Positions 5,104 through 56,090 of a stretch of DNA of 64,000 bases are shown one piece after another. Both the position numbers and the translations under genes were made by a program. The stretch covers positions 10,982,555 to 11,046,554 of the forward strand of contig OX393569.1 of the NCBI GenBank assembly GCA_947652115.1, read 5' to 3'. The notes beneath the pieces were generated by a model. That model was given only the letters and a program-made list of their open reading frames with translations. It was not told the origin of the DNA and made no database searches. This DNA is from Blastomussa wellsi (taxonomy: Eukaryota > Cnidaria > Anthozoa > Scleractinia > Plerogyridae). Numbering within the stretch: position 1 is the first letter of the stretch; the number at the start of each line of letters is the position of its first letter.

Positions 5104-5163
5104 AACACACAAAGACAAGGGTGCTCCTGGCACACCAGAACCACCCTCGTCTTTGTGTGTGGT
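5104..5163. repeat. Short hairpin
   Basis: ACACACAAAGACAAGGGTG and CCACCCTCGTCTTTGTGTGT form an inverted repeat around a 20-base loop. The downstream G-rich open frame at 5155-5565 looks non-coding. Confidence 0.6.
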
Positions 5164-38700: not shown

Positions 38701-41700
38701 GTCAAGCGCTTTTGTTCCATTGGGAATTTTTATAGAATGACAATGTAGTTTTGTAGGTTTAGGATTTTGTTGTTATTTTTATTATGTAAAGCGCTTTTGG
38801 ACCATTGGGAATTAGCGCTCTATAAATATTGTATATTATTATTATTTATTATTATTAATGCGAGATTCTTTTGTGTCAAACAATAGGAAAACACACCAAC
38901 GTCAAAATCCAAAATGGCGGCGTGCAGGAAATTTAAAAGCGAGAATCTTTTTCTCGCTTGATAAGTATGAAATGTTACATGCCCCTCATCCAGTAAAATT
39001 TTTCATTTAGCCACTATTTTAGACAACCTAATGCCAACTTGTTTCAAGAGCCGAGGTTCTCTTTAATTAGAAATTCCAATAATTTATTACTTAAAATTGT
39101 TTCAAGTGATTAAAAGGACAATAATTGTCCTCGGTTTAAAGCGATTTAACATGAAAACAAAACTGAAATACAACACAGCCCTGCACAATGACATAGTAGT
39201 TACCAGTTGTAAGATAGCTGCAGCTGCAGCCTCGCATGGTCAGATGTCTCTACAGTGACAATGTCAGTACAGAAGTCAGGGCCAAGAAGCAGACACAGTG
39301 CTTTGATTACGTTGGGTTTCTTTGGTTTTCCTCCTGACAGACTAAGCTGTGTAAACTGTTCATCAGGACACAGCATAACCAGCTCGGGACCAAATACAAC
39401 TCTGTAAAGAAACAATGAAAAAGCTATAAACTTGCAAAGACAAAGCAATGTTTCAGTGGGGACAATCGAACCGTGAACACTTGACATTTTATTGTACATT
39501 TTCTTTTACCATTGTCCAATGTTAACCATTGATATCAATAGAAGAATTAATACTTTTGTCTATATCAAGGGCTCTCACTGGATGATCACAAAAAATGCAA
39601 AAATAAATGTCAAGTATTCAAGGTTTGAGTGTCCACACTGCAATTGGTGCAGGAACCTAACTGTAACATCTCCCTAGCTTGCATTTCATCAAAGCTAGGC
39701 CTGTTTTTGCAAAGGTAGACACATTCCACGAATTATATTTCCAATAATAACAAGACAGCCGGAATTACCTTGGATGCACAAGAGAAACAAGTAACCGAAA
39801 CACTTGACCTTATGATTCACGTTGTAGCATCATATATCGTATATAAGATGTCACACCTCAGTATAACACAACAACGGCAAATAATGTTACTAGGCCCATG
39901 TAGTTGAATCAAATGCGTAGATCCGTGTATTTTCATTTGGCGGATAGATCTAGCCGTTTGTCGTTAGCTGTCATTTATTTTGAAATTTAAGTTTTAAGAC
40001 TAGTTTGCTATCTGTTGTTTTTGTCAAGTGGTATGAGTATACTATAAGTATACTAAGACTAAAGAGACAAATTATATTTTATGACTTTATGAAAACAGCA
40101 CAGCAGCGTTTGACCTTACAGTTTTGGCAATGCCACGCTTTAAAATAACGCAGCTTTTGTTTAACCACAACATCAAAAATGGCTGCATTTCAGTTGTTTT
40201 TTCAAATGAAATAGCAGTCATTTGTAAGATTTGCTTGTTAAATTTGCCAATTTTTTCCCTCTTCAGCATTGGAGTGAAATGACTTTTGTTTTTGTGTCAT
40301 TCAGCAAGAGCTTATGTTTACTTGTACAGTAAAATAGTTACCTGCAAGTTTTCACTTTATGCGAATTAAGGAAATTTTTCAGATACTCGAATAAATAAAT
40401 AAATATACCGTTTATTTGCCACATAATGAAATCAACATTTCAGTTTTGAATGGCGTCGACAAAGCCCATATTGCACTAAGTCTCCTAATTAACCTTTAGG
40501 AAGTGGACGATGTTTGCTCACAATCAAATAGAGTAATCATTTATAGAGATCAGGAGCCGGGTGAGTTGCCATAGCATCACCAAAATATACACCAAGTGGT
40601 GTATTTCTTAAGGTATAACGTGCCCACCAAGTTACCGGGTTCAGGGATGTAATTTGTGAAAACATCCCAACGGACAACATCAACAGGATAAGTTGGAATC
40701 TTGTCTTCTGTGAATGCCATCAAAAGATTAGGTCCAAGCTGTTGTTCATCTTCACTCAACCATCCCATTTTCTTGGACAGTGTAGCGTTGACTTTGAATG
40801 TCACGCCACGATGTTTTTTCGTGGTTCCCATGTTTTTTACGATCAATTCGTCACCATCCCATTTGAAATTGGCAAATGTTTGTCCTCTGTCTACTCGACT
40901 GATAAAAGAAGCTCCCCATTCTGGATTGTAAATCGGAGCGCCATTGCCACCGGTTTTGTATCTTTTTTGATCATAAAAATTCACCACGCTTTTCATGAAT
41001 TCCACACCATTCAGTCTGGAGAATACATTGTTCAAATCGCTGATGTTCAATCGGCTTGTGTAGTAGTGATTGTCATTCTCGCCATGAAACCATTCGTACT
41101 TGAACAGGACAGTTTTGGGATCATACGTGACAGCAGGGATTGTGAGTCACCAATTTTCCCGTCTTGTTTTTCACGGGTTCTATCCACGCGTATTTGAACA
41201 ACACTTCTCAAACTCATTAATAATTCATCGAGTTAAAACAAAGAAAATCATAACCGTGAAGGAGGTTTTGATACCCGATCTTAATTAGCATAGATTTTGA
41301 CGATTTTATTTCTCCGTTTACTCCTTGGTTTTTGTTTCAATTGAGAAGATATATCAAACACTCGAGACTGTTTCATCGGATATCCAAACACCTCGAAGTT
41401 CGTTAAAAATACTCCGCTGCGCGTCGTGTTTTCAACTCTCTTCTCGGTGTTTGGATATCCCGATGAAACACTGTCTCTCGTGTTTGATATATTACGTCCA
41501 AAACGATCAGCAGGTAATGGTTGCCTTTGTTTTGTTTGGCCAAGGTTTGCACTTCCACCAAATCAGCTACCCATTGTTGATCGATATTAAACACCAAGAC
41601 GGGAGAAGTAGTGTATTGCCTCCTTCTGGGTTTACGAAGCGTGTGTCCCAATTCTCTTTCCAAGAGTTTCTTGACTCTGTTGACAGGTAATTTTTGAGCC

Positions 41701-44700
41701 TTGGCGAATCGTTCAATACCTCCCAAACTACCAGGTTTGGTGGGATCGCGGTAATCTTTAAAGATGTTTTGGTCATTTTTCTTCTTCTTTTTACCTTTCT
41801 GTGGCATTGTTGACGGCTTCACGCAGTGCAAAGAAACTGCGTCTCACGATCGACAGTCGCATTCTATATATGATGTCGTACCATTCCGTTGCATGTTGCT
41901 GTTTTTCAACCACATCACAAAGGGTACCAATCGAAATGCATTGCATGCCACGTCCACCTGGTCAAACAGGTCTAAGGGAACGCATTCAATTCCGTAGGGT
42001 AACTCGATGTTTTCGTCGAATCTCGACCACACTTCATCACACAAATCGCAAACGGTTGTCCACCTGATCTTTTCTTCCATTTTAAAAGCAAGGTTTCGAT
42101 CCTCTGCGCCACTCTGTCTTCATCCGATCATTTATATGATGTTTTTGGTGCACATCATCCCGATTTTTTGCCTTATATGGAGTGATTGGTCTGTACAAAG
42201 GTCGATTCACAGCACCATATGAGTTGTTGACGCATCTGGAAAGTCCAAAGATCATCGCGCAACTTTGACGTGATTGGTTTAACCACTTTCAGTAACCGGT
42301 TTGACTGCTGGCGTCACTCGATTCTGATTGGTTGTTTGGTTTTATATAAAGAAGAACGCTTTTTCGTTGTTTATCATTTCAAGAATGGAGCAAGCAGAGA
42401 TGCCGGAGATCAAGAAAGAAGAGGCAGAACTGACTGACTACATCAAGTTGTTGACAAGTGAAGAAGAAGGTAATCTTCCCGCTATTTATTATCAACCCGG
42501 TGATGTATCGCCGATACGCACATGTTTGACTAAAAAAAGTCAAACCGCGGTAAAAAGAAAAAAAATAAAGAAGGAGATGAATCTCCCACACGTTACATGT
42601 TGCCTAAAGATTTCCCACCGGCTTCCAACAAGAAGAAGAAGAATAAGAAGAAGAAGACAAGCAAAGAACAAACAGAAGTGGAAGTGATGGAAGAGGGTGA
42701 AATACCGTCGTACGATGAAGCCATTGATTTTTTCAACAAGTTCTGTAAATCCATTCCACAAGCAGAAGTGAGTTGCCCGATTCACATCAATGTTCCACTT
42801 CAAGAAAAAACAGCAAGCAATGGATGGAAGTACCTGGTTTGTAGTGTGGGAAGAGATGATCGCAAAGATCATTGTTTTGTCTTGGTGGACAAAAACAAAG
42901 CCAAAACGTATCTCGACATCATTCGAAATACGAACACTGTGATGACTTACTGCTCTAACAACCTGGATAAATTGTTGTGTTACTGCGACGAACCGGCCAT
43001 TCTTAGCATCTCTAATTCGACGAAGAATCCAGATCGCCCTTACTTCCGCTGCAGACAAAACATGTGCAAGTTCTTTCAATGGGCTGATTTGCTACCGAGA
43101 GGAAAAGTCTTGGCTTGGATAGAAGGAGGAAAATGGCGACACCCATTGGTCCAGAGATGAACAAGGTTACCCAATGAGAGGACAAGATTCTCCTTGGTAT
43201 CACAAAGCCACCTACACAGATGTCAATTCCATTCCTTTTGACCAGCTGTTGTGGCTCGAGTGTCAAGCCGAAAACATCACGTTCATGGAACAGAATCAAG
43301 AGGTAATAAGTCCTCCAGAAATAAGGGGACGTTACTATACAAAAGAGAATGAACCTGCGTTGAAGAATCAGATTTACATCAGACGTCTAATGAAGAAGCA
43401 CGGTCTGACAGATCAAGAATGAAATAGAAAGTGTGTATGATATTGGACTTGGAGGGATTTTTTTGTCAACAAGAAGTTTCAAGTGCGGGAACTGGGATAT
43501 TACGCTTGGACAGGAGATCACGGACGATACGCACTTTACGCAAAAGTACCTTGGTACAATTTATCCATCAAAGACAAAAGAACTGCTGCCTATCAAAAGT
43601 ATAACATTCATGGACTGACGTACGATCCCAAAAAACAAGAAAGAGGATACGAGTCTCACCAGTTGGAAGAGATATTAATGAATTTGTATCAGAACAATAA
43701 ATGCAGTGAAAGACATGTAATAGCCTACAAAGGGGGACATGTGGAAAATGATTTGTTGAACAGACTGAACATTCCAAGTTTAAACCTTGAAGTGTATAAT
43801 TGTCCTAAATACGAAATACTAAAATCGAGTGTTGTCGAGCCTTTGCCCGATTGCGGATTTCATTTCAATTGTTGTAACACTCATTGTAGCATAGTCGAAT
43901 GTCATGCTTTTTGGTTATGGATGATCACTTGCGTAGAATAAAATCACAGAGACTTTTTCAAATGTGTCAACATTGTTTTAATCATACTTCTCCTAATATA
44001 CATCTCTTTGTTTCTAACGTTTACAAATCAAAAATTTTCAAACGTGACAATAATCCTGATCTACATCGCTTTAATTCCAACGTTTACAAAACAAAAGTCT
44101 TCACGAATTTCATACGAGCGAGTGCTACATCAAGATTCTCACCTAAAAATACAGTTGTAAAGTTCCAGTCCTCAATGTCAACGTTAGACCATTAGGTTCC
44201 TCGTGGAACAAAGGGCGGACAATGTCATAGTACTCTCCGTAAATAGAACAGCAACAAGTCAAGAAAACGCGACCAAGACACCACTTCGCTGTTATTTCGC
44301 CCCATTTGATTTCTTTCACGAACTTCTCATGATGAGCATTGTGCACCCTGCGAAGAGGTTGTGTACACGTGGGAGGTTCCTTGCCACAAACCAGACAACA
44401 AGAAGGTAAATTTCTGCAAAACATGACTGACAAAAGAAAAAAAATCAAATATCGACGCCATAACTCTCGGAAATGTTCATTTCCCCATACAATACAAAGT
44501 CTGCCTCGCGTATGGCATCACGCAGCTGCCACAAGTGATGGTGGTGTTGTTCACAACGTCTGGTAACACGTGCAAGTTCACGAATGGTTCTCATCAACCT
44601 GCACAGAACTCTGACAAGCTTCCTGTATCGCTCTGTCTTCATGTTTTCTTTGTCTTCGACCAACGTTCTTTCACAGTCCACTAGTCTGATTTTGCACTCA

Positions 44701-47700
44701 CAAAAAAACATCGATCGGTTCCATGACTCACCTCAACTCAAACTCAGCTTCAAAGGGTAATAGGTGGTGTGGGATGGAAAGCGAATGCCTTATATACAAT
44801 CAAAACAGGTCACGTGATACCAAGGGTATGGGGATGGGGGTATCCCCCTTATGAGAGGTTGAACACACTATATCAGGAACTCACTTGCAGCGTTTACTTC
44901 ATTCTCAAGTTTGAAACTGTGGAGACATACAAGATGGCAAGCAATGATGACAGAGAGAAGTTATGGAGGAAGAAAGGGCCAATGCAATGGGAGTTCCTTG
45001 GAGAAGAAAAAGAAATAGAAGAGGTAAGAAGTTATTGAGATGCACTGGCAGAAGAAATCAAAGAAAAGATGCAATGGGCAAGTGTAGAAATGCATGTACA
45101 GGAACGATTGAACACTCGTTGCGAGATTAAGAAGCTAGAAGTAAATGAAGATCGTCATTATCTCCATCTACCTGTGACTTTGAACACTACACATGTATAA
45201 AAACTGTTATGTTAGATAAAAGCAAAACAGAATTTGGAACTTGGGAATTAATTCATTTATTCTTGGATCCTTGCGAAAGTTGCGATTTATTCCTCTCTCA
45301 TTACGCAGAAAAAACAAATGAAACAGGAGACATTGTAAATCAAGATACATTGTATTGCGATTTAGATCGAATTCCTTTCACGAAAACGAAATAAGAACAA
45401 TGAACGTTGGTTTCATCAAGAGTGTATGACAACCATGGATATTGTTGCCTGTGTGCAACATATTTCGATCCGGAAACCGCATGCAATGACTTTCGTCACT
45501 TCTTCTTTTATCCCAGAGATGAAAAGTACAAAGAAATCAAAAAGTTACCGTTTTGTGATGAAGACAAATTGGTTGTTCATTTTCTTGTTTGAAATAAAAT
45601 TCCTTTTCATCGCAGATAATCAGTCATTGGGATATTCTTCCCGTCGAAATACAACAAAAGATACAAAGGAAAGCAGATCGTTTGATGATTGAGACAAAAC
45701 GTAAATTCAAATATTGGTTCAACTTGAAAGTTGTATTGGATCAATGTTCTCATTGCGGATTCTTCATCGATATGAGACATCGCATAGATGAAGAAGGAAA
45801 TTTCAAGAGGAACAGATTCGTAGTAAAAAGTTACAGCAACTTTTGGTCATTACAAATATTTAAATCACATTTGGGACATTGATCGTTTACCTCCTCGCAT
45901 GATTGAGCGGAGTGGGGAAAAATCACCATCGTGGAAACAATACATTCGTACCGTGACTGAGGAAGAATGCGTAACATTTTGCGACGAAGGATTATGGATA
46001 CACCCAGATTGCATTTTACCCTATCACATTTCTATTCACAGGGAATGGGAGTTAACCCATGGGATCAATTACCAGACGAACTGAAACCAATCATACAGCG
46101 ACAAGCTGATCAAATCATGATCAATATCATTCACCATTTGCCATATTGGCCTGCTTTGTTTACTTCCTTGGATCCTTGTATTTATTGTCATAGTTTCATA
46201 CACTATCATTCAATGGAAAAACCTCCATCGTGTCTATGGCTCAAATCGCGTTTACCTTGGCACTATTACACAACAGAGGGAAGATATGTATCTGCATTTT
46301 ACGTTGACAGAATTGAAAACAAAAACAGAATAAAACCAGAATCAACATGGATCCATTGCTATTGCATTGGAAATCACGTTCTATCCTCAAACTTTTCACA
46401 CACACCATAGTGATCTCATTTCTGTTCGCAGGAAGCGGGAGCCAATCACTGGAAACTATTACCAGATGAACTGAAACGAATTATACAACGGGAAGCTGAT
46501 CAAATTATGATCAATATCATTCACCATTCGCCTTATTGGGATGCTTTGGATTCGACCTTGGACCCTTGTATTCATTGTAACACTTTCATTTTCACTTGCG
46601 GCACAGGATACTGTCCACTATCTCTATGGCACAAATGCACTTTACCTTGCTACTATTTCGCAAATGATGGTTACGTAACTGAGTTTTACATTGACAAATT
46701 CAAACAAGCAGACTTACAACGCACAAGAGAAGTACTGAAAAATCATTCTGAATTAAAAAAATGGAGATATATGAGGAAACCCCATATTTATTGACAACAC
46801 ATGGCGAATACCATCCATGTGTCATATCAAGCCCAGTGAATCAGATTGGCATCACAATTATTGTTGTCTTGACATGATTGCAGATTGATGACGACACAAT
46901 GAACGAAGCGGCAAGAGAATGGGAACGCGGATTTGATTTCATTTTAACTCCACACGTGGACAGACGATTGAGACGATTTGATTTACATCACAGAAATTAC
47001 ACTGCGCGACTGGCACAGCACGGTGGTGCATTGGTCAACTTGGACAGAGCCATTTTGCCGGGACAAATCAAGGAAGCCTTGCAACGCAGCATAAACAAAC
47101 AAATATTAGAAGACTCAGAAGTACGACCCGACGATCATTTGCTGATCAACATCAACTCAAACAGACTGAAAAACGCTTATCATTTCAGACAAGTGCGAGT
47201 GCGTGATTGGAGAAACAATACGTTGATCGCTCGCACCGTTTTGGAAGAATTAAGCAGACTGTTAAACTCCAACGAGAATTTCAGAATGGACGATACGCTC
47301 AACTTGAACATTTCTCACATAAAAGCCACTGGGATGGGAAGCGGACGACCGAGACTAAAACTGGGAACAGAGCACATTGAGAAACTCTTAAACTCAGAAC
47401 CCAAAAGAAATGGAAGAAAAAAGAAAAAGGAGAAAGAGAAAAGCGGACGACACTCAGCAAAAAGAAGAACCTCCCATTTTTGTGACTTGGGATGCAGAAG
47501 CCATGCAAGAAAGAGGAATTCACGTACCCAATTTGATTTGCGCCATGACCTCGAACAGTAACTTGCAATACAAGTTCGAGGGTTTGACATGTGTGACAGA
47601 CTTTCTCGACTGGTTACGAGAAATAGCCATCGACAATAAAGTCATTGCCATTGCTCACAATTTCAAAGGGTACGATTCCTATTTCACTTTGAACGAACTA

Positions 47701-50700
47701 TACCGTCAAGGTATCTGTCCGGATCAATTAGTAAACGGAAGCAAGATTTTGTCAATGAAAGTCCACGACATTGAATTCAAGGACTCGATGTGTTTTCTTC
47801 AGATGCCGCTTTCTGCCTTCCCAAAATCCTTTGGACTGACGGAACAGAAAAAAGGGTTTTTCCTCATTTCTTCAATATTCCAGACAACCAATCGTACGTG
47901 GGTCCCATTCCGGCACGCGATCATTACGACCCGGGAGGTATGAAACCAGAAAGAAAAACAGAATTTGAGGAATGGCACCTGTTTGATTTCCAGGCGGAAC
48001 AGTTGGCCTATTGCCAATCGGATGTGAAATTGTTACACGACGGATGTAAGGTGTTCCGACAACAATTCCAACAAGTGGCCGGATTTGATCCCATGAAAAA
48101 GTGTTTGACCATTACATCGGCTTGCAACCTGTACTACCGCACAACATGCATGCCCAATAACTGTTTGGCCTTGGAACCCATACGAGGTTGGCACGGAAAA
48201 GGAAAACCTCACTCCCAGGCTTCCATCGAATGGTTACATTACTTGAACCGCAATGCCACATCAACCGACCGAACGGTGGAGAACACGTGATCCGTGTGGG
48301 TAACAGACGAGTGCACGTTGATGGGTACGCGGCGTCCACCAATACCGTGTACGAATTCTACGGTTGCTTCTATCACGGTTGCCCCACTTGTTTTCCAAAC
48401 CGATACCAGAAACACACCAAACTGGACGAACGTACCATGCACGACGTGCACGAAACCATGCAACATCGAGCTGATCAGATCCGACACGCAGGTTACAATC
48501 TCATGGAAATCTGGGAATGTCAATGGAACAATCTCAAAAAACGAGACAGGGACATTCAAACCTACCTGAAATCTTTAAACTTGACGGAGCGACTAGAACC
48601 CAGAGATGCTTTTTTCGGGGGCAGAACCAATGCAGCCAAACTTCATCACAAGCCGCAAGAGGATGAAAAGATCCATTACGTGGATTTCACGTCACTTTAT
48701 CCCTTCGTAAACAAAAACTGTGTTTACCCCATAGGACATCCCGTCATCGTGCTAGAACCAGGGCACACAGATCTATCCGAGTTTTTCGGACTTGCCAAAT
48801 GCACTGTGTCACCACCCTACGGGTTATACCACGCCGTCTTACCCTACCGCAGCGGCGGAAAACTGACCTTCCCGTTATGCCGCACCTGCGTAGAAACGGA
48901 ACAATCCAAACCGTTAACAGAACGCAGCGCAAGTTGCAGTCACACGCTTAAAGAAAGAGAACTCACCGGTACTTGGTGTACCCCTGAATTAGAAGAAGCA
49001 GTGCGTCAAGGATACGTGATCCAACACGTGCATGAAGTGTGCCATTTTCAAAACACGTCCGACACGTTGTTCAAATCGTACGTGAACACTTTCGTGAAAA
49101 TCAAGCAAGAAGCCAGCGGGTGGCCAAAACGGGTTGGAAATGATACCGACAAACGCGTGAAATCACGGACTGAGAAAAAGGAAGGAATCAAATTAGAACC
49201 GGACAAGATAGAAGAAAATCCGGGAAAACGATCTCTAGCCAAAATGATGCTAAACTCTTTCTGGGGAAAGTACGGGCAACAAAGCAACAAGACTCAAGTT
49301 CAAACGTACACCAGTCCAGCCCTATTCCATAAGTTGTTGGAAGACGACAGCAAGGAAATAAACGACATCCGCATCGTCAATGAGGAAATGATCGAAGTTG
49401 TCCACAAGTATCAAAGCGAGTGTGACCCCATTCAAGTGAACATAAACATTTTCATGGCTTGCTTCACCACTTGCTGGGCAAGACTACGATTGTATCAAGA
49501 AGGTCTCTTAAAACTGAATCCTCTACAGACTTTGTACTTTGACACTGACTCCATCATTTATCCCCACAAAGGAAATGAACCCATTTTACCGTTGGGTGTT
49601 TTCCTAGGAGAATACACAGAGGAATTGAAAGACCCGGAAGATTACATTGTAGAATTCGCTGCTGCGTGGCTTCTCGCTGAAGACACGCGGACAAGAACAA
49701 TTGAACTATGACATCCTAAAAGAAAATGTCATGGATGAAGTGACACAACCCTTGGAGGAAAAACAACAGCAAATTCCCATCTTCAATCCATTCAAGATCA
49801 CAAGAGACAATAAAACCAAACATTTAGAAACAATGACTGAAATAAAACGTTACCAAATCGTTTTTGACAAATGAGCAGTGGATCCCATCACGTTTCACTC
49901 TTACCCATATGGCTATTACGAAGAATTCGAATGGGATGAACAAGATGAATTGAATTTGCAAAGTTTATTGCTTTGTTAAGACTTTCGGCAAAAGGCGCAT
50001 GTGTTCCCCCACATCTTCTTGGCATATTGATAGACGAAAAACCCGATCTGGATGGGTCCATCTTGAGTCTCTTCTTGGCACTCTTGATCTCGTACACTCC
50101 TGCAGCCAATTCTTCCAAATCACGAAAGAAGAAACTGTTGATGGCACGTGCGACTTTGCTGACGTCTTCTGTGTAGGCCACTTTCTGGTGGGGGGCCACA
50201 TCCATGAGGAACCGATCGTACCCTGCATTCCTGACGGTTTTCGCCGTCTCCCCCAGAATCTTTTGGTTCGAGTCTGCATCGGCTTGCCTGTGTCAATCAC
50301 TCACGAAAGGACCAAAACAGTCTTTACTACTCCACTGGACGGCATGGTGGACGCGAGTGACTACTAACCCTTCTTCCAAGTAAAATTTTAGAAGAGGTGT
50401 GGCCAGGAGAATCTTTTCTCCAAAATAGCTTCCAATCAGTGATCGACGCGGTGTGGACAGGATGTCGTGTTCTTGTGCAAATTGGTGCATGTGTTGGCCA
50501 ACATCCTCCGAGGAAATTTCCATGTTTTTGAAAATGGGTGTCATTTCGCTAAACTTCTCTTGATTGCATCAGGAACTATCTTTCTCCTTCAAGTATCGTC
50601 GTCCTTCTCTTCACAAAAAAGACAAAAATTCACAATAATAAAATAACACTTCGCTCGTTCAGTTATTGCATGACATTGAACTGAGTGACTTTTCACTCGT

Positions 50701-53154
50701 TATTGCGTGACACTTTAGTTATTGCGTGACATGTATATTTCTGTGACCATTAAAATTTATTTGAATTCAAATACTGTCTCCTCATTGGTTTATGGCTTGT
50801 GACGTTTTTGCTGACGCAATTTGCGGTTTAGAAAAGTCACGTGTTTGAAATACGATTGGTCCATTCAAATTATACTCGATTCTGAAAGGTCGGTTGTCAA
50901 ACCATACGCTCTTACTACTATCGAGTTGGAGGCTTATTATTAAACAAAGTCAGTTACTCTCCCCTCCACATTTGTTAAATGGTACCTTGTTTGTTACAAT
51001 GACGGATGGATGGAAAAAGTGTTGATATTTTAAAAGCTACATCAAAATTACTTTACAAAGAATTTAATTCCAAAAAGCAAACCCCTCCAACTGCCCAAAA
51101 GAAGCTGCAGCATAAATACCCCCAGCTAGAGGTGGAATGGACAAAGATCTATTCCCTTCCGTTTTTTGTTACAACAGAAACAAAGCTACGTGAATTTCAA
51201 TATAAGCTTTTGAACAATATTATTTTTACAAACGAAAAGCTTTTCAGATTTAAAATGATTGATTCACCTTCATGTAATTTTTGTAAAAAGGAAGTCGAAT
51301 CCCTCGAACATCTATTTTTTCACTGTAAGTGTACAGAGGCCTTTTGGCAAGCTCTTATATCTTGGCTTAGAAAACATAATTTTTGTGTAGAGACCATAAC
51401 GTTCATAACTATTTTATTCGGCGAGTTTAGAGAAAGTGAAGATAACATGATTTTAAATCACCTGATACTCATGGCAACGTTTTTTTATCAATAAAGGCAA
51501 ACTGAATAATATGGAACCATCATTAAAGGTTTTCGCAGCCAAGATTAAGATTGTCTATGACATAGAGCAACAAATAGCAGTCAAGCATAATAAGTTGACT
51601 AAACATTACAATAAATGGGAAAAACTTTTAAAGTGCACCTTACCCCAAAGTATTTTTTCGCTACAATAAACCATTGCACCAGATCGAAACGCGTTACACC
51701 TTTCGTTTCTCCTTTTTACTAAATGCGGACTATTTATAGCATTTAAAAGTTACGAAAAACTGTACGTTATTTGGTTCACAACCGAGTCAGAAGGGGCATG
51801 GGTCTATTCCTGGATTGACGTCACAAACTGATTTGCATGCAACGTTACATTGTATATTGTGACAGGAAATGTCCCTTTTGCTAACAACGCATATTGCGGG
51901 CTCGCAACATTCCATACTTTTCCTAATCTTGTACCGAGATCTTCTCAACCCTCGAGAGAGAACATCTAGTAAAAGCCGATTTTGCTTGCGACAAATGTGT
52001 CAGAAATCTGACACATGATGCCACTACGCATGCTCGACAATTTAAATGGATGGAAAGCTCACTCGTTACACCTAGGTCATCATACTTTCACATACAGGGA
52101 AACTCCAGTACCACGGTATTGAGATGGAGTTTTTTGAAGAAAAGAAGTTGACACTCATGTTTTGCTAATAAATTTAAGTCGTCAACGCAGCTGGAAAAAG
52201 CCGTGATAAAAAGAGCGCACGTTGTGATGGACGTGTATAAGCTCACCATACGCGTCAGCTTTGCGAAGTTTTCTAGACCTTTCTATACATCTTCTCTTTC
52301 ACATACATGTTTATTGACAACCGTTGGTACTTACAAGCTTGATAGTAAAACTATTTCTGTAGCTAATTAATTCACTTTAGAAACGTTTAAAAGAAGGAAG
52401 TGTTTTAATAGAATTTGAAGCTTTAAAAGCCGCCATATTTTCTTACAAGCTCACGTATGCAAGACAAAGTTTGTATTATCCGCACGCAAATGATGATGCA
52501 GTTCACTGACCAATCAGAATGGCGAACCGAGCGGACTTGGCCAGATGTTTCCTACAAAGTGAGTAAACATCTGTGTATGAGATTATACTTTTCGAACCGT
52601 GACGACACCTTCCACGTGAAAACATGGCTCCTAACTTTTTGGTCTTGGCGACAACTTTGGAAAATTTTGGAGCCAGATGGCTCCTTGAAAAAAAAGTTAA
52701 TTTCGTGCCCTGGATATATATGTATGGTTGTCGTTTTTTTAGTGCTTAGGATTATATGAATTATTTTCAAATACGTCATATAACTTCAGATAGTATTTTC
52801 TCAAATTGCCTAAAACCCATAGACCCTTTGCATAAATGATGCCTAACAATACTTTGTACATCCTTAGCCTCGTACTTATGTTTCTAGACAAAGGATTTTT
52901 CACATAAATGTGAGGCTTAGGATGTATTGTTAATCAAATTTTGGCACCATTTATGCAAGAGGTCTATGAAATTTGTAAAAACTCAATGAGCTTAAAATGT
53001 ACAAACTACGATGTTGATAATGTCTCTTGTCAGTACACGTACCTGGCAGTCTTCTCTTTGTAATCATATATCTGCACAGCTGCATTATGAGGCACTCTGA
53101 ATGTCACAACTCTGGTTTTGTTTCTTCCAAAGTTACTCCTGGGTTCTCTTTGTG
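11575..53154 (-). CDS. MVP: Major vault protein, C-terminal half (7 exons; 5' part outside window)
   Basis: This gene encodes the protein that forms the shell of the cytoplasmic vault ribonucleoprotein particle. Seven minus-strand exons, 53154-53043, 39401-39204, 19067-18926, 18497-18286, 17470-17227, 12056-11868 and 11706-11575, join in phase with GT-AG introns and yield 408 complete residues plus a stop. Read in order they cover the end of the last vault repeat ([12 protein letters not shown]), the SPFH-like shoulder ([44 protein letters not shown]), the Ala/Glu/Lys-rich cap helix and the cap ring ending [17 protein letters not shown]. These are diagnostic MVP signatures known from vertebrates. 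No disruption was found in any exon, so the gene looks functional. Introns are 13,641, 20,136, 428, 815, 5,170 and 161 nt and are full of transposons. The exons for the N-terminal repeats were not found up to 64000. The protein stops soon after the cap ring and lacks the longer tail of the human protein. Confidence 0.96.
11868..12056 (-). CDS. MVP: MVP exon: distal cap helix and start of cap ring
   Basis: The exon is 189 nt and 63 codons, phase 0 at both ends. It contains a helical segment ([19 protein letters not shown]), then [20 protein letters not shown] and PEMQ, which matches the cap-ring entry of other vault proteins. The acceptor is TTAAAAG, with a weaker pyrimidine tract than the other exons, and the donor is GTTTGT. 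Confidence 0.95.
13813..13960. mobile_element. MITE with GGGCC-CTGTTGTTCAAAGGC termini
   Basis: GGGCCCTGTTGTTCAAAGGC on the left pairs with GCCTTTGAACAACTGGGGCC on the right. The interior repeats ATCCAC(T/C)GGATAA motifs. I recognise it as a type widespread in cnidarian DNA. It is nested inside the 3.5-kb TTAA element. Confidence 0.8.
14358..14822. mobile_element. TIR element rich in CTCGAGACAACCC motifs
   Basis: The left end TACTCGAGACAACCCTCCCC pairs imperfectly with the right end GGAGGGTTATCTCGGGTACC. The interior repeats GTTGTCTCG, GGGACAACTT and TCATATAAACAC motifs in both orientations. It is also nested within the 3.5-kb element. Confidence 0.65.
16139..16638. mobile_element. 500-bp TTAA-flanked MITE related to the 3.5-kb element
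   Basis: The termini GTGCCAATGAAGTGAATT and AGTGTCTATGAAGTGAATT are inverted, with TTAA at 16135-16138 and 16639-16642. The sequence just inside, TCCAAAGTTTGAGA and CGATTTTACAAGC, is shared with the 12203-15722 element. It is therefore a short relative in the same MVP intron. Confidence 0.75.
17227..17470 (-). CDS. MVP: MVP exon: cap helix coiled coil
   Basis: The exon is 244 nt: one base completing Arg plus 81 codons. It encodes a long Ala/Glu/Lys/Gln-rich amphipathic helix (for example [20 protein letters not shown] and [20 protein letters not shown]) typical of the vault cap helix. The acceptor is CATTCCAG and the donor is GTAAGC. It ends exactly between codons. Confidence 0.96.
17767..18246. 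mobile_element. MITE in the 815-bp MVP intron
   Basis: Both ends read AGTTTCCAGAA-ATT-CAGC inward. Further inside, GGTATCAAACAAA-GCCCAAT is inverted at 17842 and 18150, so the arms are about 130 bp. The element makes up most of this intron. Confidence 0.75.
18286..18497 (-). CDS. MVP: MVP exon: end of shoulder, start of cap helix
   Basis: The exon is 212 nt, opens in phase 0 with [12 protein letters not shown], contains [20 protein letters not shown] and [14 protein letters not shown], and ends with AG of a split Arg codon. The acceptor is TTTTGCAG and the donor is GTAAAG. It is a clean match to the conserved hinge between shoulder and cap helix. Confidence 0.97.
18926..19067 (-). CDS. MVP: MVP exon: shoulder domain, middle part
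   Basis: The exon is 142 nt: one base completing Trp plus 47 codons. It carries [20 protein letters not shown] followed by [16 protein letters not shown] and FDDFHK. The acceptor is TTTAACAG and the donor is GTGCATTC. This is the most conserved MVP stretch in the window. Confidence 0.97.
19098..19785. mobile_element. Fold-back element interrupted by an about 390-bp insertion
   Basis: The first half (about 19098-19278, with GGACGGAGACAATCCAGTGA) and the second half (about 19672-19785, with GGTTGAAAAAGTGGCACGCG) look like parts of one coral-type repeat. The ends CAATTGAGTGCCGAAA and TTTTGACAATCAAAATG are inverted. The intervening DNA is unrelated and has no ends that I could define. Confidence 0.5.
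19925..20240. repeat. Dispersed repeat shared with 61735-61985
   Basis: AGTGCAGAGTGTTAT, AACTGAACATGTA, GAGGACACATTGTTGC and GCAAACTGGGAAACA occur in the same order in both places. It has no recognisable termini or gene. Confidence 0.6.
20430..20515 (+). repeat. Solitary copy of the ACGGTGGCCAATT repeat
   Basis: The same unit as at 1608-1700, with ATCTCTTTCCGGTGGCCAAT and ACCCAGTTGATAAAACC. Confidence 0.75.
20521..20905 (+). repeat. Tandem duplication, 225-bp period
   Basis: Two copies share TTTCTCTAAAC, ATCCAAAAACAT, AAGCGTAGTACAGATGTTAT and GCACGAAAATCCC, starting at 20531 and 20756. No coding potential is evident. Confidence 0.8.
21323..22226. mobile_element. 0.9-kb TIR element with TTTATACGTCG termini
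   Basis: The left end TTAGGCCCTGTTTATACGTC and the right-end complement TAAGGCCTAGTTTATACGTC match. The subterminal DNA is saturated with GAATTAAATTCG, CGTCGAAT and related palindromic words. hAT-type non-autonomous elements look like this, but I could not fix an 8-bp duplication. Confidence 0.7.
22230..23840. other. Intronic, no gene recognised
   Basis: A short GGTTTGGGTCTTGTTACCGA block at about 22301 is also seen, in variant form, at 27574 (GGTTTGGGTCTGGTCACCGA), so part of this stretch is repeat-derived. Nothing else is supportable. Confidence 0.4.
23844..23979. repeat. Long hairpin
   Basis: CATAGAAAGTGC, GTACGGATTATTATTCAC and CGCAAAACTTTGGAAA are repeated in inverted order on the right (TTTCCAAAGTTTTGCAAC, GTGAATAAAAATCCGTAC, GCACTTTCTATG). 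The loop is about 24 bases, CGCACTCGTTCGCTGCGCAC and flanking bases. It is probably a small fold-back MITE. Confidence 0.8.
25030..26826. mobile_element. Fold-back element with subrepeat-built inverted arms
   Basis: The left arm (about 25030-25368) and the right arm (26501-26826) are reverse complements over about 330 bp. Each arm is itself about seven head-to-tail units of about 42 bp built on AGCAAGAT--CAGAACGCAAT and ACAAAA. Inverted arms made of tandem subrepeats are the hallmark of FB-type fold-back elements. The centre contains a copy of the ACGGTGGCCAATT repeat and an assembly gap, so the internal content is incomplete. The open frames in the arms encode repetitive NSKI peptides and are not genes. 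Confidence 0.75.
26301..26500. other. Assembly gap (200 N)
   Basis: The 200 undetermined bases begin directly after a truncated ACGGTGGCCAATT repeat and end at the right arm of the fold-back element. The round number suggests a placeholder length. Confidence 0.99.
26920..27125 (+). repeat. ATTCCGA minisatellite and duplicated block
   Basis: Two blocks of ATTCCGAATTCCGGATTC followed by GGATTCCTGCTTTTCCA occur at about 26920 and 27070. The block as a whole is duplicated around non-repetitive DNA. Confidence 0.7.
27596..28265 (+). repeat. Tandem duplication, about 335-bp period, 2 copies
   Basis: AACAAGAAGCTCGAAGAGCT recurs at 27601 and 27938, and CGATCGGACAATGCG at 27734 and 28071. The copies differ by few substitutions. 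The plus-strand frame 27801-28049 is open in one copy but not conserved in the other, so I do not call a gene. Confidence 0.8.
28354..28671 (+). CDS. Orphan open frame, hypothetical
   Basis: A 105-codon frame has non-simple composition, including [40 protein letters not shown] and [13 protein letters not shown] recognise no family. It lies antisense within the giant MVP intron and could be a relic of a transposon exon or a chance frame. There is no clear start context. Confidence 0.2.
   Translation: MAVNCSFGTYSRSFYQLLEHYVSWAMANAKNPAKGRLGEALYEKYLRKSVQDLWSNKEDALGCKKMKKNFPDCCSSDIDSLLVYRTAENRNSRDLHCLYIVLFFF
28690..30140. other. Intronic, nothing recognised
   Basis: No supportable gene or repeat was seen. 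Short open frames here are weak and lack recognisable motifs. Confidence 0.4.
30302..30351 (-). repeat. 3' LTR, aligned 5' portion
   Basis: It starts TGTAATGAACAGCGG on the minus strand directly after the purine tract AGGGGAAAG and contains the TATA-like GTATAAGTATAG. It matches 37557-37606 at 47 of 50 positions. The LTR probably continues below 30302 through AATAAA (about 30265) to about 30165. Confidence 0.75.
30513..30914 (-). pseudogene. Ty3/gypsy integrase C-terminal tail
   Basis: A basic, low-complexity tail ([12 protein letters not shown]) runs to a terminal [16 protein letters not shown] and stop at 30513. Such RP-rich ends are usual in gypsy integrases. The central part of integrase between the core and this tail is missing. 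Confidence 0.65.
30915..31713 (-). pseudogene. Ty3/gypsy integrase (truncated)
   Basis: It has the HHCC zinc region ([20 protein letters not shown] then CTNC), and the catalytic core shows the first Asp in IVATDLF and the second in [11 protein letters not shown] stop falls just where the catalytic Glu is expected after KANGLV. There is a frameshift near 31390. Confidence 0.85.
31715..32891 (-). pseudogene. Ty3/gypsy reverse transcriptase and RNase H
   Basis: Upstream motifs include [32 protein letters not shown] and the catalytic-palm block [20 protein letters not shown], with [15 protein letters not shown]. The catalytic YxDD position reads DIDD near 32268 after a frameshift. The connection ([17 protein letters not shown]) and RNase H ([19 protein letters not shown]) follow, ending near 31715. 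At least one frameshift and one stop break it. Confidence 0.85.
32894..33228 (-). pseudogene. Ty3/gypsy aspartic protease domain
   Basis: The segment contains the active-site [11 protein letters not shown] and a downstream hydrophobic-Gly motif, GLLGL, as in retropepsins. It is the first pol domain after the nested element. The frame is open here but is separated from reverse transcriptase by a stop. Confidence 0.8.
33573..34448 (+). CDS. DIRS gag-like protein with CCHC zinc knuckle
   Basis: A 291-codon intact frame with a Lys-rich, helical first half ([14 protein letters not shown]), a Ser/Pro/Gly-rich linker and a canonical zinc knuckle, [14 protein letters not shown], at about residue 190. 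It ends in an acidic tail. It is the nucleic-acid-binding capsid-like protein of the element and overlaps the reverse transcriptase frame by 56 bases. Confidence 0.75.
   Translation: MKRQLDEPCNSQMSELKKIRFTEPRTFKKKGHEQQYKHNQQVKTVVSEAKDAVTSGKQDACIAKLNEGIELIDQRQKLILIADKLDEYGWKTIGEYLDNELADNDQDAKKMKKAEKKLRENLPKRNSASKAAKARSWSFKSTRAVGSTTISPLPSPFTFPSGNYTSRFSPTAGGTRHIGPFVGGSSQKRGTCFSCGKSGHWRNECPLLFVAQAQPDGKKLSNHFIDLCDSESMSGSNDAFEHDSEIDNRPLEKGDFLERECRPDSVRGRLKTYFGVERAHRSGSECNQRGL
34393..35091 (+). pseudogene. DIRS reverse transcriptase
   Basis: It contains [20 protein letters not shown], then [13 protein letters not shown], which holds the first catalytic Asp. A stop follows at 34786, then in the same frame [17 protein letters not shown] and FLDDGLG, which holds the catalytic pair. 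One stop and a later frameshift near 35085 break the frame. Confidence 0.85.
35092..35967 (+). pseudogene. DIRS RNase H and C-terminal region
   Basis: VVYSDASE precedes a stop at 35411-35413, followed by [10 protein letters not shown], then [24 protein letters not shown] and [15 protein letters not shown], giving the D, E, D and D pattern of DIRS RNase H. Downstream [11 protein letters not shown] and [19 protein letters not shown] are characteristic of these elements. A stop and a frameshift near 35455 disable it. Confidence 0.8.
36600..36892 (+). pseudogene. DIRS tyrosine recombinase, N-terminal core-binding part
   Basis: [20 protein letters not shown] and [17 protein letters not shown] resemble the SAM-like core-binding domain of tyrosine recombinases. 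The sequence ends at 36892 before the catalytic R-H-R-Y region, where gypsy gag sequence resumes. Confidence 0.6.
36893..37501 (-). pseudogene. Ty3/gypsy gag fragment
   Basis: From the ATG at 37501 the pieces show [18 protein letters not shown], then in other frames [20 protein letters not shown] (a gag capsid-type segment), MKDRIVLG and a zinc-knuckle-like [20 protein letters not shown]. At least two frameshifts and one deletion break it. It ends where the DIRS element begins; the next part of the polyprotein resumes below 33229. Confidence 0.65.
37557..37606 (-). repeat. 5' LTR remnant
   Basis: It begins TGTAATGATCAGCGG and carries CATATAAGTATAG. Homology with the 3' LTR stops abruptly at 37557, so the rest of this LTR up to the gag start has been deleted or has diverged. 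Confidence 0.75.
37620..38470. other. Intronic, nothing recognised
   Basis: Between the gypsy LTR and the short tandem at 38476 no gene was found. TAATTAATTAATTGATATTA at about 38425 is a short AT palindrome. Confidence 0.4.
38476..38516 (+). repeat. TTAGTGCTT short tandem
   Basis: Five imperfect copies of a TTAGTGCT/TTAGCGCC-type unit. Confidence 0.6.
38630..38865 (+). repeat. Retroposon 3' tail, duplicated, ending in ATT microsatellite
   Basis: Two adjacent copies share AATGTAGTTTTGTAGGTTTA, TTGTTGTTA, AAGCGCTTTTG and CCATTGGGAATT. The second ends with GCGCTCTATAAATATTGTAT and TATTATTATTATT. Such CGCTATATAAAT plus ATT-repeat tails are typical of LINE/SINE 3' ends in marine invertebrates. 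Confidence 0.65.
39204..39401 (-). CDS. MVP: MVP exon: shoulder domain, first part
   Basis: The exon is 198 nt, with acceptor TTTACAG and donor GTAACT. It encodes VVFGPELV, a Pro/Lys-rich loop, [10 protein letters not shown] and [14 protein letters not shown], the characteristic start of the MVP shoulder. It ends with TG of a Trp codon that is completed by the G opening the next exon 20.1 kb away. It stands alone between two transposon-filled introns. Confidence 0.96.
40577..41145 (-). pseudogene. Virus-like element protein of unknown function
   Basis: This long open frame contains [38 protein letters not shown] and [20 protein letters not shown]. The alternation of aromatic and polar residues in short beta-like stretches is compatible with a structural (virion-type) protein, but no family is recognised. 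At its 5' side it runs directly into the integrase relic in another frame, so a deletion has probably joined two genes. It stops at 40577. Confidence 0.45.
41146..41831 (-). pseudogene. Retroviral-type integrase relic, interrupted
   Basis: From the start near 41807 the frame has a Lys-rich opening, [20 protein letters not shown], a helix-turn-helix-like [14 protein letters not shown] and the core beginning WVADLVEV, which carries the first catalytic Asp. It breaks after LLIVLDV at about 41509. About 300 bases of foreign DNA with a hairpin follow, and the core resumes at about 41212 with [14 protein letters not shown]. The second Asp and the Glu are absent. Similar integrases occur in Polintons and related transposons. 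Confidence 0.7.
41345..41502. mobile_element. Fold-back MITE inside the integrase
   Basis: GATATATCAAACACTCGAGA, CTGTTTCATCGGATATCC and AAACACCTCG are repeated in inverted order at the right, with arms of about 55 bp and a loop of about 40. It lies within the foreign 41213-41508 segment that splits the integrase; the true ends of the insert are unclear. Confidence 0.75.
41844..42080 (-). CDS. Small Cys-containing protein of the virus-like element
   Basis: A 78-codon frame starts [20 protein letters not shown], with a Cys-x2-Cys pair, and ends with CDCRS. Its start lies about 90 bases downstream of a CCATATAAGGC TATA motif. It is unrecognised and could be an independent small gene or the 5' end of the integrase gene. 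Confidence 0.4.
   Translation of the reverse strand: MEEKIRWTTVCDLCDEVWSRFDENIELPYGIECVPLDLFDQVDVACNAFRLVPFVMWLKNSNMQRNGTTSYIECDCRS
42170..42180 (-). promoter_or_regulatory. TATA-type promoter, leftward genes
   Basis: CCATATAAGGC on the minus strand lies about 90 bases before the ATG at 42080. The same ATATAAGGC core occurs before the leftward gene at 44711. Confidence 0.5.
42341..42350 (+). promoter_or_regulatory. TATA box of the GRF gene
   Basis: TTTATATAAA lies 35 bases upstream of the ATG at 42385, in the gap between divergent genes. The short distance implies a very short leader, a common arrangement in viral promoters. Confidence 0.55.
42385..43422 (+). pseudogene. GRF-type zinc-finger protein, two frame breaks
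   Basis: The start at 42385 opens an acidic N-terminus ([11 protein letters not shown]), followed by a Lys-run linker. After a frame break at an A8 run (42558-42565) the frame continues with [19 protein letters not shown], a Cys/His patch ([17 protein letters not shown]) and a GRF finger. The finger has [11 protein letters not shown], then [17 protein letters not shown], with the Cys pairs and terminal Trp-Ala-Asp typical of this ssDNA-binding finger. A second break near 43140 separates the C-terminal part ([10 protein letters not shown] to GLTDQE). GRF fingers occur in nucleases, topoisomerases and large DNA viruses. The role here is probably in DNA replication or repair. Confidence 0.65.
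43437..43941 (+). pseudogene. Exonuclease-like (RNase H fold?) protein, one frame break
   Basis: The ATG at 43437 begins ILDLEGFF, which looks like the Asp-x-Glu motif of DEDD exonucleases. A T7 run (43458-43464) shifts the frame; the continuation has [32 protein letters not shown] and [14 protein letters not shown]. It ends with a Cys/His cluster, [19 protein letters not shown]. The function is inferred from the first motif and general layout only. It could be a proofreading-like or RNA-directed nuclease of the element. Confidence 0.4.
44143..44711 (-). pseudogene. Hypothetical leftward protein with C-terminal Cys/His cluster
   Basis: The ATG at 44711 starts [20 protein letters not shown], followed by a helical Arg-rich segment ([20 protein letters not shown]). 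The frame breaks at an A8/T8 run (44437-44444) and continues with [14 protein letters not shown] and HNAHHEKF, a possible zinc site. A TATA motif lies about 80 bases upstream. No family is recognised. Confidence 0.4.
44787..44797 (-). promoter_or_regulatory. TATA-type promoter of the 44711 gene
   Basis: GTATATAAGGC on the minus strand lies 76-86 bases before the ATG at 44711. It shares ATATAAGGC with the motif at 42170-42180. Confidence 0.5.
44934..45200 (+). CDS. Cys-module array: N-terminal segment with LAEE motif
   Basis: The ATG at 44934 opens [15 protein letters not shown] and [13 protein letters not shown] at 45036 interrupts, and the same frame continues with [20 protein letters not shown], ending at 45200. 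The second part resembles the F-box-like LP-EL---IQR-AD segment of the downstream modules (3-5), so it is probably a diverged first module. The TGA means either a short spliced-out piece or decay. Confidence 0.35.
45209..45394 (+). CDS. Cys module 1 (LDPCESC)
   Basis: [20 protein letters not shown] is the module core seen again at 45700, 46150 and 46540. [11 protein letters not shown] at the end matches the VDRI/IDKF segment of the later modules. Only the second half of a module is present here. It would belong to one zinc-binding repeat. Confidence 0.45.
   Translation: MLDKSKTEFGTWELIHLFLDPCESCDLFLSHYAEKTNETGDIVNQDTLYCDLDRIPFTKTK
45430..45592 (+). CDS. Cys-rich segment between modules
   Basis: The frame contains [20 protein letters not shown] and [14 protein letters not shown]. 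It has a Cys-x2-Cys pair but not the LD-x-C-x2-C core, so it is either a diverged module or a linker. It is in another frame than its neighbours. Confidence 0.3.
45616..45882 (+). CDS. Cys module 3 (F-box-like motif plus LDQCSHC)
   Basis: After an acceptor-like CTTTTCATCGCAG the frame reads [20 protein letters not shown], an LP-x-E-[IL] motif like an F-box start. [20 protein letters not shown] and a short basic tail follow, to a stop at 45882. It shares the order W-x2-LP-x-E, IQR-x-AD, YW and LD-x-C-x2-C with modules 4 and 5. Confidence 0.5.
   Translation: MISHWDILPVEIQQKIQRKADRLMIETKRKFKYWFNLKVVLDQCSHCGFFIDMRHRIDEEGNFKRNRFVVKSYSNFWSLQIFKSHLGH
46042..46410 (+). CDS. Cys module 4 (F-box-like motif plus LDPCIYC)
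   Basis: It is preceded by TTTCTATTCACAG, an acceptor-like sequence. The frame reads [49 protein letters not shown], a Trp/Lys/Leu-Pro segment ([12 protein letters not shown]) and [11 protein letters not shown]. It is strongly similar to module 5 at both DNA and protein level, so the pair arose by tandem duplication. Confidence 0.55.
   Translation, partial: GMGVNPWDQLPDELKPIIQRQADQIMINIIHHLPYWPALFTSLDPCIYCHSFIHYHSMEKPPSCLWLKSRLPWHYYTTEGRYVSAFYVDRIENKNRIKPESTWIHCYCIGNHVLSSNFSHTP
46432..46794 (+). CDS. Cys module 5 (F-box-like motif plus LDPCIHC)
   Basis: It is preceded by TTTCTGTTCGCAG. The frame reads [62 protein letters not shown] and [10 protein letters not shown], ending [10 protein letters not shown]. 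Acceptor-like bases lie exactly 75 nt before the internal MINIIHH in both modules 4 and 5, so each module may be an exon. Confidence 0.55.
   Translation, partial: EAGANHWKLLPDELKRIIQREADQIMINIIHHSPYWDALDSTLDPCIHCNTFIFTCGTGYCPLSLWHKCTLPCYYFANDGYVTEFYIDKFKQADLQRTREVLKNHSELKKWRYMRKPHIY
46899..47561 (+). CDS. N-terminal domain or leader protein of the PolB gene
   Basis: The first ATG is at 46899; an acceptor-like TTGCAG lies at 46878-46883. The protein has [58 protein letters not shown] and [20 protein letters not shown], then a long Lys/Arg run. Comparable domains precede PolB in virus-like elements of animals, from general knowledge. It overlaps the polymerase frame by about 150 bases; the last 50 codons are probably an out-of-frame extension. 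Either one frameshifted gene or two overlapping genes would explain this. Confidence 0.55.
   Translation: MNEAAREWERGFDFILTPHVDRRLRRFDLHHRNYTARLAQHGGALVNLDRAILPGQIKEALQRSINKQILEDSEVRPDDHLLININSNRLKNAYHFRQVRVRDWRNNTLIARTVLEELSRLLNSNENFRMDDTLNLNISHIKATGMGSGRPRLKLGTEHIEKLLNSEPKRNGRKKKKEKEKSGRHSAKRRTSHFCDLGCRSHARKRNSRTQFDLRHDLEQ
47410..49981 (+). pseudogene. Family-B (protein-primed type) DNA polymerase, broken in several places
   Basis: From the ATG at 47410 the 3'-5' exonuclease motifs are seen: Exo I WDAEAM (47488-47505), Exo [13 protein letters not shown] (about 47654) and Exo [12 protein letters not shown] (48009). The polymerase motifs are [10 protein letters not shown] (about 48680), [14 protein letters not shown] (about 49238) and C YFDTDS (49535-49552). 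Extra Cys-rich insertions ([15 protein letters not shown]) sit between. Length and motif spacing fit the DNA_pol_B_2 group of Polintons, adenoviruses and linear plasmids. Breaks are a T5-run shift (47857-47861), a shift near 48240, a deletion near 49665 that removes the segment before LRGFSL, and a TGA at 49872-49874. All catalytic motifs are nonetheless intact. Confidence 0.85.
49965..50600 (-). pseudogene. Second, different PolB fragment (palm region), leftward
   Basis: The minus strand carries [40 protein letters not shown] and [13 protein letters not shown]. After a shift there is a degenerate motif-B-like NAGYDRF block, [19 protein letters not shown], and an [11 protein letters not shown] segment followed by GFFVYQYAK in another frame. 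These are the hallmarks of the region around motif B in another DNA_pol_B_2 lineage, distinct in sequence from the plus-strand polymerase. Exonuclease motifs and motif C are absent. At least three frame breaks occur, including one at an A3 run (50544-50546). It meets the plus-strand polymerase tail to tail. Confidence 0.6.
50655..50730 (+). repeat. TTATTGCGTGACA short tandem
   Basis: Three spaced copies of GTTATTGC(A/G)TGACA lie just outside the virus-like block. Confidence 0.6.
51006..51669 (+). pseudogene. LINE ORF2 C-terminus (L1/Tx1 type)
   Basis: The frame starts inside a LINE ORF2 and shows [20 protein letters not shown], then a zinc-binding region [18 protein letters not shown], then [16 protein letters not shown] frameshift at a T7 run (about 51480-51486) leads into the final [15 protein letters not shown] segment, with a stop at 51669. 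It is a 5'-truncated insertion, the usual outcome of target-primed reverse transcription. It may belong to the same family as the fragment at the right edge of the window. Confidence 0.8.
51675..52815. other. Intronic, nothing recognised
   Basis: The LINE 3' UTR may extend a little past 51669. Beyond that, no gene or clear repeat was seen. Confidence 0.4.
52818..52968. mobile_element. MITE with CATAGACC termini
   Basis: CATAGACCCTTTGCATAAAT on the left pairs with TTTATGCAAGAGGTCTATG on the right. Further inside, CATCCTTAGCCTC pairs with GAGGCTTAGGATG. It lies 75 bases downstream of the MVP exon at 53043. Confidence 0.8.
53043..53154 (-). CDS. MVP: MVP exon: end of last vault repeat
   Basis: The exon is 112 nt: two bases completing a codon, 36 codons, then AG of a split Arg codon. 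It contains [20 protein letters not shown], which matches the conserved segment just before the shoulder domain. The acceptor is TTTCTAG and the donor is GTACGT. The split Arg codon is completed by the first base of the exon ending at 39401, across a 13.6-kb intron that contains the virus-like element. Confidence 0.93.
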
Positions 53155-55809: not shown

Positions 55810-56090
55810 AATTAGAATTGGCATTTAGTCACAACAAGCGGTAGGTGGGTATGTCTTCACAACATTGTAATGCCGTGTAGTAATGAGTAGGGTTAAAGAA
55901 GAGAGTATAAAAGCATTGACATTTTCTAAAGATTTGTTGCATGGAATCCCTCAAATATTGCTGCAGACTTTGTGGCGGCAAGTGTAACCGCAAAGTAATC
56001 AAATTAGACTTTTAGGCGTCACACCCAAGTTAGTGACGTACATCAATCCAATCAGGTTTGGGGTTGCATCAAGAAACCAGTCAAATTGTC

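What the first reader, a model, noticed from the sequence alone, without database searches (positions are those of the whole stretch)
40577..50620. Decayed virus-like element with integrase and family-B polymerase lodged in an MVP intron
A retroviral-type integrase relic and a DNA polymerase with all Exo I-III and A-C motifs sit within 10 kb, with GRF-finger and exonuclease-like genes between them. That pairing defines Polinton/adintovirus-type elements, but the other genes do not match the standard Polinton set, and capsid, ATPase and protease were not seen. It may represent a distinct anthozoan lineage of such elements.
Basis: partly seen in the sequence, partly recalled or inferred. Interest (0 to 1): 0.8.

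Follow-up and report, generated by a model that had tools for sequence, protein, structure and literature searches.

The report
Broken Polinton in a coral intron
This is the dead, shortened copy of a virus-like jumping element (a Polinton, or Maverick) sitting inside a host gene's intron, and the same genome holds longer, apparently intact relatives with capsid genes, so it is a further example of something already known from stony corals.

Summary
An integrase fragment, a GRF-finger gene, an exonuclease-like gene and a DNA polymerase B lie together at window 40634-50919, inside what is inferred to be an intron of a major vault protein gene. They form one element: the block 41494-49985 recurs collinearly in 6 of 6 close copies examined in the same genome. 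Longer copies are complete Polinton/Maverick elements, one spanning 24,568 bp, with (AGT)2//(ACT)2 ends and 6-bp target duplications in 4 of 4 copies examined at both ends. Beyond the integrase, sister copies carry a double-jelly-roll capsid protein, an A32-like ATPase and an adenain-like protease. The window copy lacks them because its left half is gone; its right terminus, at 50919, is exact. Two copies with different target duplications differ at 5 of 10,000 bases, so the family moved recently. Coral polintoviruses are already in print. The most interesting point is a capsid-side gene whose middle comes in sharply bounded, discrete variants; the window keeps the rarer one.

The parts
39197..39283 (-). 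exon piece of the host major vault protein (shoulder domain, positions 1-29)
   Evidence: PF11978 match at C15:11021751-11021837, E 1.4e-8, one stop inside the match
40634..50919 (.). left-truncated remnant of a Polinton/Maverick element
   Evidence: collinear blocks in 6 of 6 close copies; right terminus CTTACTACT ends at 50919
40634..41140 (-). fragment (central variable domain) of the capsid-side gene called FYL1 here
   Evidence: 95.3% over 507 bp to copy L017; 54.7% aa to FYL1 of the C22 copy
41141..41493 (.). insert in the integrase region, with a 40-bp near-palindrome at 41378-41460
   Evidence: no blastn match of 80 bp or more in 6 of 6 close copies; inverted repeat I2
41494..41843 (-). 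integrase, N-terminal part only
   Evidence: 88% aa over 121 residues to L009:1-1020(-), which hits rve 2e-13
42328..43422 (+). GRF zinc-finger gene, broken into three open frames
   Evidence: PF06839 1.5e-8; 67-86% aa to L009:1547-2575
43441..43941 (+). exonuclease-like gene (motif level only), frame broken at its start
   Evidence: 91% aa over 160 residues to L009:2515-3093; no nuclease family hit
44727..46791 (+). array of cysteine/histidine-rich repeat frames, broken; includes a 177-nt direct repeat (46023-46199, 46413-46589)
   Evidence: 71-84% aa to L009 frames in 4323-6299; repeat D1
46878..49871 (+). DNA polymerase B pseudogene; about 0.77 kb of its N-terminal half missing at 47393/47394
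   Evidence: PF03175; 82-100% aa to L009/L010 PolB frames; gap relative to 6 of 6 close copies
50664..50919 (.). right terminal inverted repeat, partial, ending CTTACTACT
   Evidence: 77-82% to the right ends of 6 of 6 close copies; terminus

Best explanation
The feature is the right-hand 10.3 kb of a Polinton/Maverick (polintovirus) that integrated into an MVP intron and then decayed. In intact relatives the element is linear DNA with inverted terminal repeats. Its integrase joins both ends to host DNA with a 6-bp stagger. Its PolB is thought to copy it from the ends by protein priming, using an N-terminal priming domain that a built-in protease-like domain cuts off. A capsid half (major capsid protein, protease, packaging ATPase, capsid-side genes) is thought to build particles. 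Shown here: gene set, ends, target duplications, copy number, recent movement, double-jelly-roll fold of the predicted capsid protein. Inferred from the family: priming, release, packaging, particle formation. The window copy can do none of this: its left half is gone, its integrase is cut before the active site is complete, and its PolB has a deletion and broken frames.
Against: The window copy has no left terminus, so its own target duplication cannot be tested. ATPase and protease scores in the C22 copy lie just under the Pfam cut-offs (21.1 vs 22.8; 19.6 vs 21.3); the ATPase passes in a second lineage (23.6), the protease does not in any of the three scanned. No penton was shown by structure. 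In the fourth copy the terminal-repeat alignment is only about 77%, part of it flanking satellite. One of the six close copies (C10) lacks the counterpart of window 44537-45884. At 24.6 kb the C22 copy is longer than the 15-20 kb quoted for Polintons (PMC4028283, passages).
Confidence: 0.96

Rival explanations
1. Two unrelated insertions (an integrase-bearing element and a PolB-bearing element) happen to lie side by side.
For: In the window alone the integrase and PolB are 5 kb apart, on opposite strands, with decayed DNA between.
Against: Same order and spacing in 6 of 6 close copies; single termini with one target duplication per copy in 4 of 4.
Confidence: 0.01
2. A distinct, capsid-less integrase-plus-PolB mobile element of anthozoans.
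For: No capsid, ATPase or protease match among the 20 window frames scanned.
Against: Sister copies that share the block carry a double-jelly-roll capsid protein, a protease and an ATPase between the same termini. The window's left edge at 40634 cuts through the capsid-side gene.
Confidence: 0.02
3. Better filed as an adintovirus than as a Polinton.
For: An adintovirus/polinton from the coral Stylophora is named in PMC11071308 (passages). The PolB N-terminal part has Cys and His columns conserved in 4 of 4 sequences of three lineages, as expected for an OTU-like domain.
Against: No adintovirus sequence was on hand. No chromodomain was found in the integrase by Pfam. A profile search of the PDB with the N-terminal part found no OTU.
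Confidence: 0.25

Closest known systems
Polinton/Maverick elements (polintoviruses, class Polintoviricetes)
   Same: rve integrase, PolB of the DNA_pol_B_2 family, double-jelly-roll capsid protein, A32-like ATPase, adenain-like protease, inverted terminal repeats, 6-bp target duplications, (AGT)2//(ACT)2 end motif
   Different: 24.6 kb in the C22 copy against the 15-20 kb quoted; extra GRF-finger, exonuclease-like, cysteine-rich repeat and SLATT-like genes, whose presence in other Polintons was not surveyed
Polintoviruses of stony corals (Stephens, Faghihi and Moniruzzaman 2024, Virus Evolution veae039)
   Same: copies of Polinton-type elements in a genome whose named matches are stony corals
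   Different: paper not held; seen only as a reference and in passages of other papers, so no gene-by-gene comparison was possible
Adintoviruses (including Stylophora coral adintovirus)
   Same: PolB, integrase and double-jelly-roll capsid protein in one element; PolB N-terminal part with conserved Cys and His
   Different: not tested against any adintovirus sequence; integrase chromodomain not seen in Pfam

Membership tests
Polinton/Maverick | family B DNA polymerase of the protein-primed (DNA_pol_B_2) type | tested here: met
   PF03175 1.9e-24 in the window, 4.8e-24 in a sister copy; priming itself not tested
Polinton/Maverick | retrovirus-type (rve) integrase | tested here: met
   PF00665 2e-13 in a sister copy; the window keeps the first 121 residues
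[quoted passage not shown]
Polinton/Maverick | packaging ATPase of the FtsK/A32 family | tested here: met
   PF04665 23.6 bits, over the cut-off 22.8, in lineage B; 21.1 bits, just under, in the C22 copy; 19.6 in lineage C
Polinton/Maverick | adenain/Ulp1-type cysteine protease | tested here: inconclusive
   PF00770 19.6 bits, cut-off 21.3, E 8e-4, next to the capsid gene; weaker in lineages B and C
Polinton/Maverick | single-jelly-roll penton (minor capsid protein) | tested here: inconclusive
   FYL1 lies directly upstream of the capsid gene; its model has mean pLDDT 53
Polinton/Maverick | inverted terminal repeats with 6-bp target duplication | tested here: met
   perfect 6-bp duplications in 4 of 4 copies examined at both ends; terminal repeats 98.6-99.4% in 3, about 77% in the fourth alignment, which includes satellite. 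Not testable in the window copy (left end lost)
Adintovirus (definition from PMC11071296, passages) | PolB with N-terminal OTU-like domain | tested here: inconclusive
   Cys and His conserved in 4 of 4 N-terminal sequences; profile search of the PDB found no OTU
Adintovirus (definition from PMC11071296, passages) | hexon reciprocally recognisable by BLASTP | not testable with these tools
   no adintovirus sequences to hand
Adintovirus (definition from PMC11071296, passages) | integrase with C-terminal chromodomain | tested here: inconclusive
   no Pfam chromodomain match up to E 1 in the 340-aa sister integrase

The most novel reading that the evidence does not exclude
The capsid-side gene FYL1 carries an exchangeable central domain. 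Within one family of elements whose capsid proteins are 94-100% alike, it exists as discrete variants with sharp edges, spread by recombination, as expected of a surface or receptor-recognition protein of an infectious virus. Coral Polintons would then be, or recently have been, infecting viruses rather than only transposons, and the window preserves a fossil of the rarer variant.
Probability: 0.3. Interest if true: 0.65.

Novelty: new member of a known kind. Interest (0 to 1): 0.4.

Why it matters
It shows that an incomplete-looking polymerase-plus-integrase relic is the truncated end of a large, recently mobile Polinton family, so gene absence in one decayed copy should not be read as a new lineage. 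The genome offers at least three lineages, with near-identical, independently inserted copies in one of them, a good setting to ask whether animal Polintons form particles. The discrete FYL1 variants give that question a sequence-level handle.

Tried and rejected
Scans of IMG/VR viral contigs with the PolB frame, the 40577-41146 frame, a PolB alignment and the capsid alignment found a relative in 0 of 4 scans; absence there says little about free virus. The 40577-41146 frame alone found no homologue among proteins; it was identified only through sister copies. The FYL1 structure model was too weak (mean pLDDT 53) and was not searched. Profile searches of the PDB with the PolB N-terminal part and with the exonuclease-like protein gave no OTU and no nuclease; the one low E-value (3.2e-5, a chain named k-cTRP5, a designed repeat protein by recall) was set aside. 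Placement among named Polintons, adintoviruses and linear plasmids was not possible. I first took window 49888-50568 (minus) for a fragment of another PolB from its look; no match supports that (best outside hit E 0.38), so it is left unexplained. An own-genome DNA search for that stretch did not complete, nor were an integrase search and an exonuclease search. Lineage counts are by identity cut on all 92 rows, where some copies give more than one row and one row is the window itself. A first pairing of capsid and FYL1 rows used 71 of 92 and 57 of 118 rows and wrongly left out some FYL1 rows with a capsid row nearby; it was replaced, which uses all 92 and all 118.

Full report
What is in the window. 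The window is C15:10982555-11046554 of a 367.8-Mb genome in 124 contigs. Among the 120 listed PolB matches (of 1864) the named ones include Acropora palmata, Oculina patagonica and Montipora capricornis; the one capsid match named among 120 listed (of 496) is from Oculina patagonica. The host is therefore probably a stony coral; the genome itself is unnamed. Frames in 40577-50620 include an integrase start, a GRF finger (PF06839, 1.5e-8), an exonuclease-like frame and a PolB (PF03175, 1.9e-24). All six PolB motifs (patterns recalled) can be read, but in three different reading frames.

Where it sits. MVP shoulder matches lie at window 18366-18500, 18896-19075 and 39197-39283 (minus). Four Vault-repeat matches lie at C15:11058289-11136435 (minus), to the right of the window. 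Strand and order fit one gene of at least 130 kb, with the element in an intron; this is inferred, as no transcript was seen. A second MVP-like locus lies on C2.

One element, not two. A search with the PolB frame gave 92 matches in the genome (83 of 674 candidates scored). By identity these fall into 57 rows at 77% or more (the window among them), 9 at 60-76% and 26 below 60%. Open frames of 1300 aa or more without stops occur in 10 of 57, 5 of 9 and 15 of 26 rows (rows are not quite copies). I fetched DNA around six close copies, two copies of the 65% group (lineage B) and two of the 48% group (lineage C). The window block 41494-49985 is collinear in 6 of 6 close copies, mostly at 81-96% identity, and the right end up to about 50919 at 77-82%. 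The C10 copy lacks the counterpart of 44537-45884, but also matches 40634-41140 at 95.3%. Window 49985-50664 has no blastn counterpart. The six are not all independent: two C12 copies are 99.95% alike over one piece, and C22 and C2 about 98%. Relative to all six, the window lacks about 1.4 kb at 46757 and about 0.77 kb at 47393, the latter within PolB and covering the conserved Cys and His columns of its N-terminal part.

Ends. The C22 copy runs from C22:11170744 to 11195311, 24,568 bp. Ends read AGTAGTAAG at the left and CTTACTACT at the right, and flanking 6-bp duplications are perfect in 4 of 4 copies examined at both ends: GTTGTT, GACGAC, ACTAGT, CATAAT. Terminal repeats are 98.6%, 99.1% and 99.4% identical over 358-469 bp in three of them. 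The fourth sits in a satellite array and its alignment is about 77%. The window's right end is the same motif, ending at 50919; its left end is lost at about 40634. PMC8097293 (passages) gives this end motif and a 6-bp target duplication for vertebrate Mavericks.

Recent movement. Two copies 0.5 Mb apart on C12 differ at 5 of 10,000 bases in one piece and 2 of 2,527 in another, and match in 450 of 450 terminal bases, yet have different flanks and different target duplications. They are therefore independent recent insertions. One of them sits inside another Polinton: its left flank encodes FYL1 residues 308-345 (84%), and its right flank encodes that element's capsid protein, protease and ATPase (68-74%).

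A variable capsid-side gene. Between the C22 and C10 copies, FYL1 and its surroundings are 90-100% identical in 100-column steps on both sides of a block of about 600 columns at 51-84%, with sharp edges. The first 200 columns, at FYL2, are 50-68% because the C10 copy is shortened there. Against the C12 copy there is no such drop (95-100%). The window fragment is 92-99% identical to the C10 variant and 49-86% to the C22 variant in that block. Over all 92 capsid and 118 FYL1 rows, 24 capsid rows are at 92% or more. Of these, 20 have a FYL1 row within 4 kb (their capsid identity is 94-100%): FYL1 is at 93% or more in 14 of 20 and at 69-76% in 6 of 20. Only 2 of those 6 are full-length FYL1 matches, the other 4 partial. 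In the 51 rows with capsid identity of 71-91%, 38 have FYL1: 16 at 62-66%, 16 at 50-51%, 2 at 59% and 4 split fragments; this second split could simply reflect sublineages. Both lists are capped at the best-scored candidates. Whether FYL1 is the penton is not shown (model pLDDT 53); its place directly upstream of the capsid gene fits what PMC4028283 (passages) reports for pentons.

How it works. From the family (PMC11071308, passages): a terminal-protein domain of PolB primes copying from the ends, an OTU-like domain is thought to release it, and the integrase inserts the linear DNA. Here the 6-bp duplications and end motifs show the integration step; priming, release and packaging are inferred. 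The OTU-like domain is supported only by conserved Cys and His columns in 4 of 4 sequences.

Known or new. Polintons of stony corals are in print (Stephens et al. 2024, cited in PMC12220804 and PMC12945077, passages, and in the reference list of PMC12721341; the paper itself was not held), as is a Stylophora adintovirus. So this is a new member of a known kind. Searches for print on a hypervariable or recombining capsid gene in Polintons matched 7 and 31 papers by term, of which I saw only the listings; I cannot say whether the FYL1 observation is new.

Noticed in passing
L029:3095-3625 (-); L021:3962-4750 (+): A small protein near the ATPase resembles the SLATT two-membrane-helix effector domain (NCBIfam 5.3e-5, 23.2 bits against a cut-off of 41) and is 80% identical over 138 residues between two element lineages. 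SLATT genes are reported in cryptophyte polinton-like viruses (PMC12220804, passages).
   Followed up: partly
L029:7693-8775 (-), window 40634-41140: The central part of the capsid-side gene FYL1 comes in discrete variants with sharp edges between elements whose capsid proteins are 94-100% alike.
   Followed up: yes
L033:132-250 and L012:2528-5925: One close copy is nested in another Polinton: its left flank encodes part of a FYL-type gene and its right flank that element's capsid protein, protease and ATPase.
   Followed up: yes
window 49888-50568 (-): Two open frames between the PolB end and the right terminus; apart from antisense overlap with the PolB end they match nothing in the close copies or proteins on hand, and 49985-50664 has no blastn counterpart.
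   Followed up: partly
window 41378-41460: Forty-base near-palindrome inside the insert that interrupts the integrase region; looks like a small non-coding mobile element.
   Followed up: no
window 51003-51494 (+): Fragment with the zinc-binding domain of a reverse transcriptase (PF13966, 3e-11), probably a LINE remnant right beside the element.
   Followed up: no
window 55129-55811: Inverted pair of 45-bp arms, 91% complementary, 593 nt apart, as in a short inverted-repeat transposon.
   Followed up: no
L020, L035: The C2 copy is inserted in a tandem satellite array with a period of roughly 71 bp.
   Followed up: no
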